From assembly GCF_003667825.1 (NCBI RefSeq), contig NZ_CP033043.1:1981501-2045500 (forward strand): 64,000 nt of DNA, written 5' to 3'. A program made the translations under genes and the position numbers. This document shows positions 14,876 through 21,464 of the stretch, one piece after another (the first letter of the stretch is position 1; the number at the start of each line of letters is the position of its first letter). Source of the stretch: Metabacillus litoralis (GTDB lineage: Bacteria; Bacillota; Bacilli; Bacillales; Bacillaceae). The notes under the pieces are model-generated. The model saw only the letters and a list, made by a program, of their open reading frames with translations. It made no database searches and was not told the origin of the DNA.

Positions 14876-16549
14876 TTATGATAAATTGTATTTTTGTAGC
14901 TTTCGAAAAACTGTTGCTTGACTTGTTTGAAGCTTTTCAGCAATTTGATAAGTTGTTTTATATCTTAACAGAGCTTTTTTTAGTGCTGTTTTCTCTGCTT
15001 GCTCTACGATCTCTCTTAATGACATTTCTTCAAGAACAATTTCTTCATCTGATGTTGTTTGTTGGTATTCATCTGGCAGATCATTGATGGATACGTATTC
15101 GTTTGGTACGGTCAAAATAAGTCTTTCTAATAAATTAGATAGTTCCCTTACATTGCCTGGCCAATCAAAATGATAAAAAAAGTTACTAATCTTTTTATCT
15201 AACACTTTTTCAACTGAATATTTATTCTTGTACAGCTCTAAAAAATAATGAACAAGTGGAAGGATATCAGCACGCCTTTCTCTAAGAGGAGGCACGAAAA
15301 TTGGGACAACATTTAATCGGTAATAAAGATCTTCTCGAAATTTTCCATTTTTGACCATTTCCTTTAAGTCTCTGTTTGTCGCAGCCACTAACCGAACATC
15401 CACTTTTTTCGATTTTGTGCCACCTACTCTCATAATTTCTTTTTCCTGTATTGCCCGAAGCAGCTTTACTTGAAGATCCATTGGCATTTCGCCAACTTCA
15501 TCTAAAAAAAGCATGCCATTATGTGCTAATTCAAACATCCCCACTTTTCCTGTCCTATTAGCCCCCGAAAACGCGCCACCTTCATAACCAAACAATTCTG
15601 ATTCAAGAAGCTCATTTGGGATTGCCCCACAATTGACTTTTATAAGTTGCCCCTCATTAAATCTGTCACTTGAGCGATATAAATATCGAACCAACACGTC
15701 CTTTCCGACTCCTGTTTCACCAAGAACAAGAATCGTTGTATCAAAGTTAGCAAGCCTGCCGATCATTTGATAAATCTCAATCATTTTATCACTTTTGAGG
15801 ATAATATCAGGGTCTTGGATGGCAAATGATTTTAATCTATCAAGCTCTTCTTTATATTTCTCATTAAGCTGTTGCACTTTTTTTAGCTCTTTATTTAATT
15901 GATTTAATTCAGAAAGATCACGAATATTCGTAACAATCTTTTCTATTTCACCTTCTTCATTAAAAATAGGATTCCCCGTCATTAGTGTTTCTTTTTGATT
16001 AAAATTTTGCTGAACAACTGAAACTGAACGCTTTTGCTCCATAACTTTCAATGTTACAGATTCTTCTAATATCCCTCTTTTTATTAAATGATTAATATTT
16101 TTACCAATATAATAATGCTTAGGAATTCCTGTAATCCTTTCAATAGCAGAATTCGTTTTTAGTGTGTTGCCAAATTTATCAGTAATATAAATTCCATCAA
16201 ATGAGCTCTCGATAATTGCATCTAATTCACGGTTTGATTTATCAAGCTCCTTAATTCGCTCCTCAAGGCGAAACCATTGCACACCGTTTGCTAATATGTA
16301 CATTCTTCTATGCTGGTTTTCTATTGTAAAATCTTTAAAAAGAAGTAAGTATTGAAGGGTATTTTTTGAGGCAATGATCATATTTGATTCCTTCTCTTCC
16401 CAAAAATCAAATAAATCTTTCATTTTCTTTTGTAAGCATACGAATTTCTCTAACTCATCTGTTTGACCAAAATGGAAATCTATAATGCTTCCATCTATTG
16501 ATGTTATGATTGTATTAAAAAGCATTAAGCTATTTTCGGTTTTAATCAT
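14876..16549 (-). CDS. Sigma-54-dependent transcriptional activator with PAS domain
   Basis: A 557-aa enhancer-binding protein. Residues 1-100 form an unassigned N-terminal domain. A PAS domain follows at about 105-200 (AIIESSFDGIYITDKFGNTLKTNSAIERITG), then a coiled linker and an AAA+ domain from about 245 to 470 with Walker A GETGVGKD, the sigma-54 contact loop GAFSGA (GAFTGA in most) and Walker B LFLDEVGEMP. A Fis-type helix-turn-helix lies at 515-557. No receiver domain is seen, so it probably senses a ligand directly. It lies directly upstream of two sigma-54 promoters and is their likely activator, as with RocR- or AcoR-like regulators. Confidence 0.9.
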   Translation of the reverse strand: MIKTENSLMLFNTIITSIDGSIIDFHFGQTDELEKFVCLQKKMKDLFDFWEEKESNMIIASKNTLQYLLLFKDFTIENQHRRMYILANGVQWFRLEERIKELDKSNRELDAIIESSFDGIYITDKFGNTLKTNSAIERITGIPKHYYIGKNINHLIKRGILEESVTLKVMEQKRSVSVVQQNFNQKETLMTGNPIFNEEGEIEKIVTNIRDLSELNQLNKELKKVQQLNEKYKEELDRLKSFAIQDPDIILKSDKMIEIYQMIGRLANFDTTILVLGETGVGKDVLVRYLYRSSDRFNEGQLIKVNCGAIPNELLESELFGYEGGAFSGANRTGKVGMFELAHNGMLFLDEVGEMPMDLQVKLLRAIQEKEIMRVGGTKSKKVDVRLVAATNRDLKEMVKNGKFREDLYYRLNVVPIFVPPLRERRADILPLVHYFLELYKNKYSVEKVLDKKISNFFYHFDWPGNVRELSNLLERLILTVPNEYVSINDLPDEYQQTTSDEEIVLEEMSLREIVEQAEKTALKKALLRYKTTYQIAEKLQTSQATVFRKLQKYNLS

Positions 16550-16671: not shown

Positions 16672-19032
16672 TTAAATTGGTGCATCTACTTCTAAATCTT
16701 CCACTCGTTTTTCTAAATATTGAACATCTTTACGAGCGTTGTAGCGATCTGCTTTTTCAACCGTAACTGTAATATTGTAATCTGGAATTCCGGCGAATTT
16801 TTCGTATCTTCCTCGTGGTAATAAGAAGTTACCTTCAGGGAAGTGCACTTCTAGGTTTCCTGTTGCAATGTCAACGAACTTTGCTTTTCCTTGGAAAACA
16901 CCAAAGCCATTATAAACGACAATTCCTTCTCCCTCAGCAATACTTAGACGTTTGGCATCTTCTGCATTCATAAGAACATCGTAACGGTCTGCCCCATTAA
17001 ATGGATCCTTTTCTTTATAAACCATTGAGTTAAACTGCTTACCACGACGCGACGTGACAACAAATTGCCCTTCTTTTTTACCAAGATCCGGTATTTCAAC
17101 TGAAATCAAGTTTCCTTTTCCATCTGGCGTAGGACAAACTCCACCTTCACATAACCAAGCCCCACCCCATTGGAAAACATCACCTACGTTTTTCAAGTGC
17201 TGAATGCCATTATAGTCGCGGTTGGCAATCGCGATTTCATCACGAATTTCCTGACCTGTTTTAAAATCAACAAGATGAGCAGTTTCAGGCTTCACACGTT
17301 TTGCAAGATCAACGTAAATTTTCCATTCTGCACGGGCCTCTTTAATTTCATTTTTATTTCCTTCAATTTCTGGTGAAAAATAGACCATTCTTTCTGTTGA
17401 AGTTGATGTTCCGCCGCCTTCTTGTTCATAGCGTGTTTTAGCAGGTAAAACGATTACTGCTTCTTTGGCATCAACAAGTGTTGATGTGTTGAAAATGATA
17501 TCTTGGTGAACTCGAATGTCTAGTTCTGATAATGCTTTTTCTACAAAATCAGGATCTGGCATCGTTTCTAGGAAGTTACCACCTGATAAATAATAAAGCT
17601 TAATTTTTCTTTCATGATCTTCAGGTAGGACGATGTTTTCAAGTGTAACACCTACAATATCACCTTGCCATTTTGGTAGCTCAAAGCCCCAAATTTTCTC
17701 TATACGTTTGGCGTTTTCTTCTTCAAATCCACCACCAGGTAAAACAAATGGATCAGCTCCCATCTCACCTGAACCTTGTACTGAGGAATGACCGCGGAAA
17801 GGCATTAATCCACTGTTCTTACGTCCCAAGAAGCCGCGCAGGAGTGCAAGGTTTGCAACTTGTGAAATATTATCTGTTGCAAATGAATGCATCGTTAATC
17901 CTAGAGCCCAAGCAAAAATCGCATTTTTACTTTTTGCTAAAAGATCAGATAATTCAATGATTCTTTCTTTTGAAATGCCCGATGATTTAACAATTTCATC
18001 CCATGATTGTTGTTCAACATGTGATTTTAATTCTTCATAATCGTTTACATGTTTTTCTACAAACTCATGATTAATCGCTGAACCATATTGTTTTTCTTCC
18101 ATCTCGAACCAGTGCTTCATAATTCCATGCATGAAGGCAATATCTCCACCAATGTTTACTTGATAGAAATCATCAGCAATTTTTGTTCCAAATAAAGCTG
18201 ATTCCATATTAGATGGTATCCAATATTTATCCATCGCAGGCTCACTGTATGGATTAACAACAATTATTTTTGTACCTCTCTTTTTGGCTTCCAACATATA
18301 TTTTGTTGAAACTGGTGATGCGTTTGATGCAACACTACCCCAGAATAATAATACATCTGTTCCAAACCAATCTTGATAATTAACCGTTGAGGCTCCAACA
18401 CCAATAGAACGCTTTAATGCTGTTTTACTTGGTGAATGACAAATACGTGATGCATTATCAATATTGTTTGTTCCTAGAAAACGAGATACTTTTGCGGCTA
18501 CATAGTAAGATTCATTCGTTATTCCTCTTGAGGTTAAGTAAAAAGCATACTGTTTCGGATCCAATTGCTTCATTTTATTTGCAATCATATCCATCGCTTC
18601 ATCCCAAGATATACGTGAGAACTTTCTCTCTCCTTTACGTCGAATGAGCGGATAAGGAATTCGACCTAATTTTCTTAACTCAGTACTACTATATTTTCTT
18701 AATTCATCAATATCTGCATGTACAATTTCTTCTTTTAATGCCGGCATCGTGTTTAAACGAAGAACATTTAACCTAGTTGTACACATGTGAGGCCCTTTTA
18801 AAGTTTGATCATGTAGGCCAGACACACCTAAGGCACAGCCATCACAAACCCCTTTTGTTAAAATGCGTGATGCATAACCTAGATTATCTTTATTATCCCA
18901 TGCTATTTTCATCGTATCGCGAAAATGATGTGGTTTAACCTTTCCTAGACCAAACGGAATTGGACTTACCCAGTGCTTTGGTTGCGGTGCTTTTGTTGCC
19001 TTTATAGGTCCTTGATGTTTTGTCTCTCCCAT
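16672..19032 (-). CDS. Molybdopterin oxidoreductase, FdhF/YdeP-type formate dehydrogenase alpha subunit
   Basis: A 786-aa bis-MGD enzyme of the FdhF/YdeP family. The N-terminal Cys set is KGVCDGCALG and HMCTTRL. The probable molybdenum ligand is the Cys in NASRICHSPS, where formate dehydrogenases have Cys or selenocysteine. The C-terminal molybdopterin-dinucleotide domain begins around residue 650. No ferredoxin-like N-terminal extension is present, unlike NAD-linked Bacillus FdhA proteins, so its electron partner is not visible here. Neighbouring fdhD, moaA and an OxlT-like carrier support a formate-related role. The YdeP branch is functionally less certain, so formate is inferred from context. 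Confidence 0.85.
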   Translation of the reverse strand: MGETKHQGPIKATKAPQPKHWVSPIPFGLGKVKPHHFRDTMKIAWDNKDNLGYASRILTKGVCDGCALGVSGLHDQTLKGPHMCTTRLNVLRLNTMPALKEEIVHADIDELRKYSSTELRKLGRIPYPLIRRKGERKFSRISWDEAMDMIANKMKQLDPKQYAFYLTSRGITNESYYVAAKVSRFLGTNNIDNASRICHSPSKTALKRSIGVGASTVNYQDWFGTDVLLFWGSVASNASPVSTKYMLEAKKRGTKIIVVNPYSEPAMDKYWIPSNMESALFGTKIADDFYQVNIGGDIAFMHGIMKHWFEMEEKQYGSAINHEFVEKHVNDYEELKSHVEQQSWDEIVKSSGISKERIIELSDLLAKSKNAIFAWALGLTMHSFATDNISQVANLALLRGFLGRKNSGLMPFRGHSSVQGSGEMGADPFVLPGGGFEEENAKRIEKIWGFELPKWQGDIVGVTLENIVLPEDHERKIKLYYLSGGNFLETMPDPDFVEKALSELDIRVHQDIIFNTSTLVDAKEAVIVLPAKTRYEQEGGGTSTSTERMVYFSPEIEGNKNEIKEARAEWKIYVDLAKRVKPETAHLVDFKTGQEIRDEIAIANRDYNGIQHLKNVGDVFQWGGAWLCEGGVCPTPDGKGNLISVEIPDLGKKEGQFVVTSRRGKQFNSMVYKEKDPFNGADRYDVLMNAEDAKRLSIAEGEGIVVYNGFGVFQGKAKFVDIATGNLEVHFPEGNFLLPRGRYEKFAGIPDYNITVTVEKADRYNARKDVQYLEKRVEDLEVDAPI

Positions 19033-19340
19033 TTGAATTTCACTCCTCGTTCTGCCTGTAATTTTTATCTTCTTATCTATAGAGTTATTAGTTAGAAAAA
19101 CTAGCCTATCATTAATTCAATTGATTTATTGATAGGCTAATTTTTCTTTAACTCGTTTCAACAAACTAACTTGGATGATCGGTGTCGCTGCATGCCCTAT
19201 GAAACAAAAAACCACCGTAAACTCATAGTACAAAGAATGTGCGAGTCAAACGGTGGTTAGTCTTTTGCAGGATCGCTACTAAGTGCCATACCAATTTATT
19301 TAATTGAATGAATAAATATGTTTATTATTACTCTTTATTT
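19033..19340. other. Intergenic region between DUF2294 and oxidoreductase genes
   Basis: 308 bases without a gene. It contains leader A (19203-19284) and, nearer the oxidoreductase, an AT-rich imperfect inverted repeat (AGCCTATCA / TGATAGGCT, 19101-19139). No further reading frame with a ribosome site was seen. Confidence 0.6.
19203..19284 (-). ncRNA. Candidate attenuator leader A (shared hairpin core plus terminator)
   Basis: On the minus strand a hairpin closed by TTAGT/ACTAA presents AGCGATCCTGCAAAAG (19257-19282). It is followed directly by an intrinsic terminator (arms AACCACCGT and ACGGTGGTT, 19210-19258, then TTTTG). It lies 170 bases upstream of the oxidoreductase start and is also downstream of the DUF2294 gene, so the terminator could simply end that gene. 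The shared core with leader B argues for a regulatory RNA. No known riboswitch consensus was recognised. Confidence 0.5.
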
Positions 19341-19700
19341 TTATTTAGAGAATTTTTGTTGTAAGTCTTCATCGAAAACAAAGATCGACATACCAAAATC
19401 TCTGTCAATATCAATATCTACAAACAAATCAACGAATTTACAGTTTAAAAACTCTTCCATTTCAATAGGAGGGTTTTTCTTGTAAATTTGTTTAACCATT
19501 TCAGTTCTTGCAGATCGTAACGCTTGCTTTCCTTCATCAGCACTGGCAATGAATTTTTCAACAGGTGATAAATTCCCCTCCATCTCACAAATAGCCCAGT
19601 TTTTACAAAAGGTTGTTGTGATTTTACTCGGACCTTTTCCCATATGCTTTTTTCGGAAAGAACGAACGATATTACTAAACTCTGCTTCATACTTATTCAT
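19341..19700 (-). CDS. DUF2294 (MpsC-like) family protein
   Basis: A 119-aa soluble protein resembling the DUF2294/MpsC family (YbcI of Bacillus subtilis): KGPSKITTTFCKNWAICEMEG followed by LSPVEKFIASADEGKQALRSARTEM are the conserved segments. The biochemical function is not established. The start has TAGGAGG 5 bases upstream. It lies between the OxlT-like carrier and the oxidoreductase on the same strand, so it may belong to the formate module. Co-transcription with the oxidoreductase would have to pass the leader A terminator. Confidence 0.75.
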   Translation of the reverse strand: MNKYEAEFSNIVRSFRKKHMGKGPSKITTTFCKNWAICEMEGNLSPVEKFIASADEGKQALRSARTEMVKQIYKKNPPIEMEEFLNCKFVDLFVDIDIDRDFGMSIFVFDEDLQQKFSK

Positions 19701-19774
19701 AATATCCTCCTACCTGTAGACAGGTTTTAGCATGAGGTATTTTACCACACCTCAGTGCATTGTGGAAGTATTAT

Positions 19775-21037
19775 TTATCCAGCTATTTTTGATCCTGACA
19801 CTTGTTGTTGACGTAACTTATTAATATCACGACGAATAACAATAGAAACGATTAATGCAACTACAAACATTCCCGAGAAGAAAGTTAAGCTAGTTGCATA
19901 GCTTCCAGTTGTATCTTTCATCCACGCTGCAAACATTGGACCAGCTAATCCAGCAGCAGCCCATGCAGTAAGAATGTATCCATGAATTGCACCCAATTGT
20001 TTTGTACCGAATAAATCGCCAATATAAGCAGGAATTGCTGCAAATCCTCCACCATAACAAGTGTATACCACTGCTAACATAACTTGGAATAAAAATGCTT
20101 CTGTAGTATGTGGTAAAACGGCAAATAATACAATTTGTAAGACGAAGAAAGTTGTATACGTATTTGGTCGACCAATAAAATCTGAAATTGACGCCCAACC
20201 GATACGTCCTAATCCATTAAATATTCCCAGGATACCAACTAATGCTGCAGCTTGTGCTGTTGTTAGACCAATACTTTCTTCAGCTAATGGTTTTGCAGCA
20301 GAAAGAATGGCAATACCACATGTTACGTTGATGAATAACATAATCCATAGATAATAAAATCTTGATGTTTTAACTGCTTCATTTGCCGTTAATTGTGATA
20401 AATCTTCTTTGATTCTAGATTTTCCAGATTGTCCTTTTTCATTAAACCCTTTAGGAGCCCAACCAACTGGTGGTTTCTCTAAATATAATGAAGATAATGT
20501 CATAATAACTAAATAAGAAATACCTAAAATAAAGAATGTGTTTGCTGTACCAACCGAATTAATTAGTGACTCCATAACTGGACTTGCAATGGCAGCAGCA
20601 AATCCGAATCCCATAATAGCCAGTCCAGTTGCAAGGCCACGACGGTCCGGGAACCATTTTACTAACGTTGAAACAGGTGCAATATATCCAACTCCAAGTC
20701 CAATTCCTCCAAGAACACCATATGTAACATAGAGGAAAGGTAATGATCCTAGATTAACCGCTAAACCGGAACCGATTATCCCAGCACCAAAGAATCCAGC
20801 TGCAAGTAAACCAGCAGCTCTTGGACCGTATTTTTCAACAAAGTGTCCTAAAAACGCTGCGGACAATCCAAGAAATAAAATAGCAATACTAAAAGTTAAT
20901 TGTACTTGTTGAGCTGTCCATCCAAACTCTTCCATTAATGGATTGGTGAAATTACTCCATGCATACACTGATCCAATTGAGATATGGATCCCTACTGCAG
21001 ATGCAGCAATCAGCCAACGATTTTTTGTCTTTTTCAT
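19775..21037 (-). CDS. OxlT-like MFS antiporter (oxalate/formate type)
   Basis: A 420-aa, 12-helix major facilitator. GSVYAWSNFTNPLMEEFGWT near the N-terminus, YGVLGGIGLGVGYIAPVSTLVKWFPDRRGLATG around helix 4 and FGTKQLGAIHGYILTAWAAAGLAGP in the C-half are typical of the OxlT/YhjX family. Likely role: carboxylate exchange, plausibly formate or oxalate given the neighbouring genes; pyruvate is an alternative seen for YhjX-type proteins. It is divergent from fdhD. Its 5' region carries leader B, so expression may be controlled by transcription attenuation. Confidence 0.85.
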   Translation of the reverse strand: MKKTKNRWLIAASAVGIHISIGSVYAWSNFTNPLMEEFGWTAQQVQLTFSIAILFLGLSAAFLGHFVEKYGPRAAGLLAAGFFGAGIIGSGLAVNLGSLPFLYVTYGVLGGIGLGVGYIAPVSTLVKWFPDRRGLATGLAIMGFGFAAAIASPVMESLINSVGTANTFFILGISYLVIMTLSSLYLEKPPVGWAPKGFNEKGQSGKSRIKEDLSQLTANEAVKTSRFYYLWIMLFINVTCGIAILSAAKPLAEESIGLTTAQAAALVGILGIFNGLGRIGWASISDFIGRPNTYTTFFVLQIVLFAVLPHTTEAFLFQVMLAVVYTCYGGGFAAIPAYIGDLFGTKQLGAIHGYILTAWAAAGLAGPMFAAWMKDTTGSYATSLTFFSGMFVVALIVSIVIRRDINKLRQQQVSGSKIAG

Positions 21038-21464
21038 GTGGTCATCCCCTTAGGTAAGCATTAAAAATTTTCTACGATGTAAAATCAAATCTTAACAAAA
21101 TAAATAGAATAATATCTTGTTAAACAAAGAAAACCGCCAATCCCATTAAAATATGACAAATAAATGCCTATCTTAAAGGTGATTGACGGTTAGTTTCAAG
21201 CAGGAATCGCTACTATCGGACCAACAGTTAATCGCTTTCAAATTCGCAACAAGTTGAGTCGATGACAGGATCGCTATCTCGGAAGCAATTTGTTACAAAA
21301 TCATGAACTTTGTAACGAAATATTACCATGTTCTATTTTAATGCGCAAGAATAATTTTTTACTTTTAGCTATCCTAACTTTTCACTAGGAAATCTTTAAT
21401 ACTTGTTTAAAAAATCAAACTATGTTTATATTTTAGTAATCTTAGAATTCGGGTGTGAGATGAT
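21038..21464. other. Divergent intergenic region between the MFS and fdhD genes
   Basis: 427 bases. The half next to the MFS gene is occupied by leader B. The half next to fdhD (21300-21464) is AT-rich and must hold the fdhD promoter, which I could not place with confidence. No open frame with a ribosome site was seen. Confidence 0.6.
21126..21292 (-). ncRNA. Candidate attenuator leader B (two core hairpins plus terminator)
   Basis: On the minus strand, upstream of the MFS gene: hairpin 1 (21256-21280) presents TAGCGATCCTGTCATC inside a longer stem CAAATTGC/GCGAATTTG. Hairpin 2 (21191-21215, TAGT/ACTA stem) presents AGCGATTCCTGC. Then comes a terminator with arms AACCGTCAATC and GATTGGCGGTT (21132-21191) and a T-rich tail. 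GTTGGT can pair with ACTAAC, competing with the terminator arm, which suggests a switch. The core matches leader A. No known Rfam class was recognised. Confidence 0.6.

What the first reader, a model, noticed from the sequence alone, without database searches (positions are those of the whole stretch)
19203..21292. Candidate new attenuator/riboswitch class shared by two genes of a formate module
Two noncoding leaders, before the oxidoreductase (19203-19284) and the OxlT-like carrier (21126-21292), share a hairpin core: a TAGT/ACTA stem with loop AGCGATCCTGC or AGCGATTCCTGC, then ACTAACC running into an intrinsic terminator. Leader B has a second core hairpin (TAGCGATCCTGTC) upstream, so there are three core copies. 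In B a GTTGGT/ACTAAC stem can compete with the terminator. I recognise no known riboswitch consensus (preQ1, THF, ZTP, Moco, c-di-GMP and others were considered). Seen: the repeats and stems. Inference: a ligand- or protein-sensing switch; formate, molybdate or molybdenum cofactor would fit.
Basis: partly seen in the sequence, partly recalled or inferred. Interest (0 to 1): 0.78.

Follow-up and report, generated by a model that had tools for sequence, protein, structure and literature searches.

The report
RNA attenuator of a formate module
Two stretches of RNA in front of formate-metabolism genes in a Bacillus relative fold into a conserved hairpin switch that overlaps a transcription stop signal; the switch recurs in many related bacteria with nearly always the same genes, and the protein that works it may be one whose function is not known.

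Summary
Leaders A (19204-19293) and B (21126-21281) of the minus-strand operon MFS carrier - MpsC (DUF2294) - FdhF share a conserved RNA element: an apical hairpin [G/A][U/C]AG-CGNN(N)C-CUG[C/U] on a lower helix (GGUnUGG or GUUGG with CUAACC) whose 3' arm also starts an intrinsic terminator (109 of 109 distinct copies by my lax test; 27% of random positions pass it). Leader B has an extra copy, P1, with clear compensatory changes. No Rfam family matches. A model of the element hits 70 of 397 genomes of the order and 20 of 398 of the class (4 of them in the order); in 75 of 81 matches in listed named genomes FdhF follows within 1.3 kb. A formate, molybdate or cofactor ligand is unsupported but not excluded. 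The element follows MpsC: in a 299-genome sample all 52 element-bearing genomes have the MpsC ortholog, and the model finds none in 23 genomes with FdhF but without it. I favour antitermination by a trans-acting protein, most likely MpsC, whose function is unknown. ANTAR systems also use hairpin pairs, but loops and protein differ. No experiment shows regulation.

The parts
19775..21037 (-). MFS carrier, first gene of the operon; L-lactate/monocarboxylate type
   Evidence: Pfam PF07690; NCBIfam NF049980 464.6 bits, cut-off 320
19341..19700 (-). MpsC-family (DUF2294) protein, 119 aa; proposed trans-acting factor (inference)
   Evidence: Pfam PF10057 8.5e-34; co-occurrence
16672..19032 (-). FdhF/YdeP-family molybdopterin oxidoreductase, third gene
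   Evidence: NCBIfam TIGR01701 825.6 bits, cut-off 582.15
21320..21348 (-). Promoter-like site of the operon (TTGCGC, 17 nt, TAATAT), read by eye
   Evidence: sequence; -10-like sites at a similar place in other B leaders, by eye; the consensus scanner did not list it
21260..21281 (-). P1 hairpin of leader B: CGA-GAUAG-CGAUC-CUGUC-A-UCG
   Evidence: 43 distinct sequences including this one, 97.7% of cells paired, 22 cells changed on both sides
21188..21227 (-). Antiterminator core (P2) of leader B: GUUGGU/ACUAAC helix capped by AGUAG-CGAUUC-CUGCU
21126..21191 (-). Intrinsic terminator of leader B with U tract; its 5' arm begins inside ACTAACC
19255..19293 (-). Antiterminator core of leader A, between mpsC and fdhF: GGUAUGG/CUAACC helix, CUU/AAG, capped by GUAG-CGAUC-CUGC
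19204..19258 (-). Intrinsic terminator of leader A with U tract

Best explanation
This is a conserved transcription attenuator. By default the nascent RNA forms a strong terminator before the carrier gene (leader B) and again before fdhF (leader A). When a trans-acting protein binds the hairpin with the CGNN(N)C loop, the weak helix under it (GGUnUGG or GUUGG with CUAACC) is held, the terminator cannot form, and transcription continues. P1 in leader B is a second copy of the binding hairpin that loads or positions the factor early. The most likely factor is MpsC (DUF2294/YbcI family), which would make it a feedback antiterminator encoded in its own operon, responding to a signal of formate or lactate metabolism or redox state. 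Shown by sequence: the element, its conservation, base pairs, overlap with terminators, gene context and co-occurrence with MpsC. Inferred: that the antiterminator is stabilised rather than destabilised, that a protein does it, that MpsC is that protein, and what it senses.
For: A terminator-like fold takes in part of the CUAACC arm in 65 of 65 A and 44 of 44 B distinct elements, against 403 of 1500 random positions by the same lax test; at least four arm bases are shared in 98 of 109. The terminator is computed stronger than the core in all 109 (means -23.9/-27.5 against -7.6/-9.5 kcal/mol), so the default is off. Pairing is kept through changes: P1 covariation score 0.293 against 0.161 shuffled and at most 0.117 slid; A 97.0% of cells paired against at most 53.4% slid; B 97.7% against at most 57.4%. 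Loop bases C, G and the last C are invariant in the aligned P1 and A sets, as for a recognition loop. All 52 element-bearing genomes of the 299-genome sample have an MpsC ortholog (at least 73% identical) and FdhF; in 23 with FdhF but no such MpsC the model finds none, and 7 of those loci scanned with filters off hold none. All 8 MpsC-bearing genomes that the model missed show core hairpins before the carrier or FdhF when read by eye. 30 of 30 further element-bearing genomes have an MpsC homolog, 28 at 72% or more. Where MpsC is not in the operon (G335, G354) an ortholog persists elsewhere. In two second carrier-FdhF operons the hairpin lies just upstream of the ribosome-binding site, with no terminator by eye (L357, L358), as expected of a protein target. 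mpsC deletion in S. [quoted passage not shown]
Confidence: 0.47

Rival explanations
1. A metabolite- or ion-sensing riboswitch. The hairpin(s) bind a ligand of the formate/lactate/molybdenum pathway directly, and MpsC is only a structural gene of the module.
For: Very high sequence conservation of loop and lower helix; context of FdhF, FdhD and MoaA, and in three loci outside the order genes that look like MobA and MoeA (recalled motifs). Tandem small hairpins can be riboswitches (guanidine-II, recalled).
Against: Leader A is a single hairpin of about 39 nt with a 5-nt loop. The model finds no element in 23 of 23 sampled genomes with FdhF but no MpsC ortholog; 7 of these loci scanned with filters off held none. 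No Rfam riboswitch matches the leaders.
Confidence: 0.3
2. Antitermination by an RNA-binding protein other than MpsC, encoded elsewhere (for example a BglG-type or undescribed factor).
For: Same RNA logic as the best explanation; the genomes hold many regulators that I did not screen.
Against: ANTAR, the best-known reader of paired hairpins (recalled), has no match in the window's genome and exceeds its cut-off in only 1 of 21 genomes. The only other candidate tested, a tiny protein, is in 6 of 60 genomes.
Confidence: 0.13
3. No regulated switch: plain terminators or RNA-stability hairpins after promoters, with the real control at the DNA motif GTTCAtgAttTGTAACA near the start site.
For: That DNA motif is found by pattern in 36 of 46 distinct B leaders.
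Against: It cannot explain leader A, which lies between genes, nor loop conservation, nor the base changes that keep P1 and apical pairs.
Confidence: 0.06

Closest known systems
ANTAR-target RNAs (EutV, NasR, AmiR; PMC3369931, passages)
   Same: Two small hairpins with alike loops, the second at the terminator; used at several points of one locus; antitermination logic.
   Different: ANTAR loops are hexanucleotides with A at 1 and G at 4; here CGNNC (5 nt) or CGNNNC. Leader A has one hairpin only. No ANTAR match in the window's genome. About 31-40 nt lie between the P1 stem and the lower helix of P2 against a linker of 5-12 nt in E. faecalis eut.
BglG/SacY/LicT ribonucleic antiterminators (RAT; recalled)
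   Same: Hairpin antiterminator overlapping the 5' arm of a terminator, factor often encoded in or next to the operon.
   Different: Other sequence as recalled, no tandem copies; not searched for by model.
Guanidine-II (mini-ykkC) riboswitch (recalled)
   Same: Tandem hairpins with identical short loops in one leader.
   Different: Other loop and context as recalled; no Rfam match here.
Moco RNA motif (recalled)
   Same: Controls molybdenum-cofactor-linked genes.
   Different: Much larger fold as recalled; no Rfam match in the window or for the element in 17 related loci.
MpsC / DUF2294 / YbcI family (PF10057)
   Same: The operon's second gene is a clear member.
   Different: The passages read report no phenotype of the deletion and no RNA role.

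Membership tests
Intrinsic-terminator attenuator | Mutually exclusive terminator and antiterminator sharing an arm | tested here: met
   109 of 109 distinct elements by a lax test that 27% of random positions pass; the core uses the same arm
Intrinsic-terminator attenuator | Condition-dependent read-through in the cell | not testable with these tools
   needs RNA-seq or reporters
ANTAR-target RNA | Paired hairpins, second one overlapping the terminator | tested here: inconclusive
   met in leader B; leader A has only one hairpin
ANTAR-target RNA | Hexanucleotide loops with A1 and G4 | tested here: not met
   CGNNC or CGNNNC loops; definition from PMC3369931 passages
ANTAR-target RNA | ANTAR protein in the genome | tested here: not met
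   0 matches in G000; 2 of 21 genomes match, 1 above cut-off
Any Rfam release 15 family | Score at or above gathering threshold | tested here: not met
   window; 17 related loci, two unrelated matches only; leaders at E up to 1: only rdlD (28.7 of 50 bits) and MIR1886 (17.1 of 62), over the A terminator
Riboswitch | Direct ligand binding without protein | not testable with these tools
   no wet assay
BglG-type RAT | RAT consensus and a CAT-domain protein | not tested
   no model search done
MpsC family (PF10057) | Score above Pfam cut-off | tested here: met
   116.4 bits, cut-off 23

The most novel reading that the evidence does not exclude
MpsC (DUF2294/YbcI) is a new class of RNA-binding antitermination protein that recognises CGNN(N)C-capped hairpins, autoregulates a formate/lactate module in Bacilli from Metabacillus to Paenibacillus, and gives a first function to a widespread domain of unknown function.
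Probability: 0.42. Interest if true: 0.86.

Novelty: new variant of a known kind. Interest (0 to 1): 0.72.

Why it matters
It adds an RNA attenuator family, broad within the Bacilli and described nowhere that I could search, with one clear regulon. It offers a concrete, testable function for a domain family now labelled after a transporter that, in S. aureus, works without it. If a ligand rather than a protein turns out to be sensed, it would be a candidate formate, lactate or molybdenum switch of very small size.

Tried and rejected
ANTAR was considered because of the twin hairpins and rejected on loops and absence of the protein. Kissing of the P1 and P2 loops through GAUC was considered and dropped: in L019 the P1, P2 and A loops differ without matching each other. 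A tiny ORF of 51-56 aa behind three full leaders (L109, L152, L153) was tested as a universal partner and rejected: 6 of 60 genomes. Sigma-54 sites were considered by eye and dropped for spacing. The outer helix of B beyond GUUGG was tested and not supported generally. Fold searches with the MpsC model gave nothing decisive; a family not listed there is not excluded. MpsC has no relative in the PDB by sequence apart from one row at E 0.25. Leader B has no match in the plasmid collection. The other 11 of the 30 loci (L020-L030) showed no core by pattern. Papers: searches were aimed at this element and listed nothing that describes it by title or abstract; others were on MpsC/DUF2294/YbcI, 87 on ANTAR. 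In PMC8632094, PMC2864571 and PMC6429828 only term look-ups in the main text were done. Subscription journals and supplements were not searched.

Two of my patterns had a wrong spacer and their empty results mean nothing; one search is the correct one. My terminator test proved lax: 403 of 1500 random positions pass, 161 of them at -14 kcal/mol or better.

Full report
What is there. The window is from a Metabacillus-like Bacillaceae genome (closest MpsC match named Metabacillus sp., 97%). On the minus strand lie an MFS carrier (19775-21037), an MpsC-family protein (19341-19700) and an FdhF/YdeP-type molybdopterin oxidoreductase (16672-19032), with fdhD and moaA divergent upstream. NCBIfam places the carrier in an L-lactate MFS family (464.6 bits, cut-off 320) and the oxidoreductase in TIGR01701 (825.6, cut-off 582.15). 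Leader B precedes the carrier; leader A lies between mpsC and fdhF.

The repeat is real. The full pattern TAGCGATN{1,2}CTG-N6-ACTAACC occurs twice in 64 kb and in none of 100 shuffles; the third core copy, P1, lies at 21260-21281. Rfam has no match at gathering score in the window, and in 17 related loci only two unrelated riboswitches. At E up to 1 leader B has no match and leader A only two hits far below their gathering scores, over the terminator.

Conservation. Searching the carrier in 60 relatives gave 30 loci; the core was readable in 19 of them (L001-L019), the carriers there being 71-100% identical. A covariance model R1 of the core (27 sequences) matched 17 of 21 genomes of the genus. 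The four without it also had no match to the carrier. It matched 70 of 397 genomes of the order and 20 of 398 of the class, 16 of them outside the order. Of 54 stretches fetched around hits, 50 hold the carrier, MpsC or FdhF; three are full leaders before a 51-56 aa ORF (L109, L152, L153) and one (L154) is a partial match inside an open frame. Of 81 matches in the 80 listed loci, 75 have FdhF within 1.3 kb downstream, 4 follow MpsC but are cut by the locus end, 1 precedes the carrier and 1 lies between MpsC and FdhD.

Structure. A-type elements (53 sequences): 97.0% of cells in the proposed pairs are standard pairs against 24.8-53.4% when slid; four pairs change on both sides, and no shuffle of 500 reached the covariation score, although the +3 slide has five cells changed on both sides against four. 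B-type P2 (32 sequences): 97.7% against 9.4-57.4% slid; 4 of 500 shuffles reached the covariation score and the -3 slide exceeds it (0.102 against 0.097), so support is weaker there. P1 (43 sequences): 97.7%, five of eight pairs and 22 cells change on both sides, score 0.293 against 0.161 shuffled and at most 0.117 slid. These controls do not fully correct for relatedness.

Switch logic. In all 65 A and 44 B distinct elements a terminator-like fold includes part of the CTAACC arm and the bases after it, four or more arm bases in 98 of 109. The test is lax: 403 of 1500 random positions pass. The terminator is the more stable fold in every one, though it is also the longer piece. Leader B of the window, cut before the terminator's 3' arm, folds into P1 plus the proposed antiterminator with an outer extension (-32.5 kcal/mol); leader A cut likewise does not fold so by energy, which suggests that something must hold it. 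Binding would then switch expression on. In two second carrier-FdhF operons (L357, L358) a lone hairpin lies just upstream of the ribosome-binding site without a terminator by eye.

Partner. In the 299-genome sample (the handles fall within the 397, which I take as a superset), 52 genomes have the element, and all 52 have an MpsC ortholog (at least 73% identity; the next match is 51%) and FdhF (at least 67%). Five more have both proteins and three have MpsC alone without a model hit. In all eight, core hairpins stand before the carrier or FdhF on reading by eye; four have model hits at E below 0.01 with filters off. In 23 genomes with FdhF but no such MpsC the model found none; seven of these loci were fetched and scanned with filters off with no hit at E up to 2, while the lax eye pattern matched in six of the seven away from the leaders. 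One of the seven, L352, has a carrier 79% identical over the part held, FdhF 81% identical and an MpsC paralog 42% identical, yet no element. Element and MpsC are absent together within one genus (g81: G158 against G256, G279, G322) and within a family (f6: g11 against g69). Thirty further element-bearing genomes all have an MpsC homolog, 28 at 72% or more; G444 and G544 have 50% and 46%. Where MpsC is not in the operon (G335, G354) an ortholog 83% identical sits beside fdhD elsewhere. This fits a protein partner but not uniquely: an ancestral operon type carrying both would look alike.

MpsC itself. Despite its Pfam name, deletion of mpsC in S. aureus gave no growth defect, mpsAB works without it, and it is not collocated with mpsAB in other bacteria than staphylococci (PMC6689103, passages). 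The AlphaFold model is confident (pLDDT 92.2) but matches no solved fold convincingly. RNA binding is therefore a hypothesis from co-occurrence, not from structure.

Comparison. The layout resembles ANTAR-target RNAs (paired hairpins near the terminator; PMC3369931 passages), but the loop rule fails and the protein is absent from the window's genome. I file it as a new variant of hairpin-based antitermination, not as ANTAR. Literature searches listed no description of it, within the limits of the library.

Noticed in passing
window 21291-21308 (minus strand GTTCATGATTTTGTAACA): A DNA motif between the -10-like site and P1 is found by pattern in 36 of 46 distinct B leaders; possibly a repressor or activator site at the start of transcription.
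   Followed up: partly
L109, L152, L153 (also L160-L162, decayed): Full or decayed copies of the leader precede an orphan ORF of 51-56 aa (YKGIxCxVIYxYGNGNYEI), without a Pfam or NCBIfam match of note.
   Followed up: partly
L357:4601-4639 and L358 near 4869, minus strand: A single core hairpin sits just upstream of the ribosome-binding site of a second carrier-FdhF operon, with no terminator by eye: possible translational use.
   Followed up: partly
L212:1560-3725 and L222:3-1892, minus strand: An FdhF-like gene appears as two adjacent open frames behind the element; a selenocysteine codon or a broken gene could explain it. Not examined.
   Followed up: no
window 19094-19147: Abutting 27-nt inverted repeat (89% complementary) between terminator A and fdhF; conservation not examined.
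   Followed up: no
window 14876-16549, minus strand: PAS/sigma-54-dependent activator downstream of fdhF; best NCBIfam hit PrdR far below its cut-off (392 of 795 bits).
   Followed up: no
L347:2869-2960 and L136 about 2810-2908: Two A-type intergenic regions carry an additional P1-like hairpin upstream; both fell outside the count.
   Followed up: no
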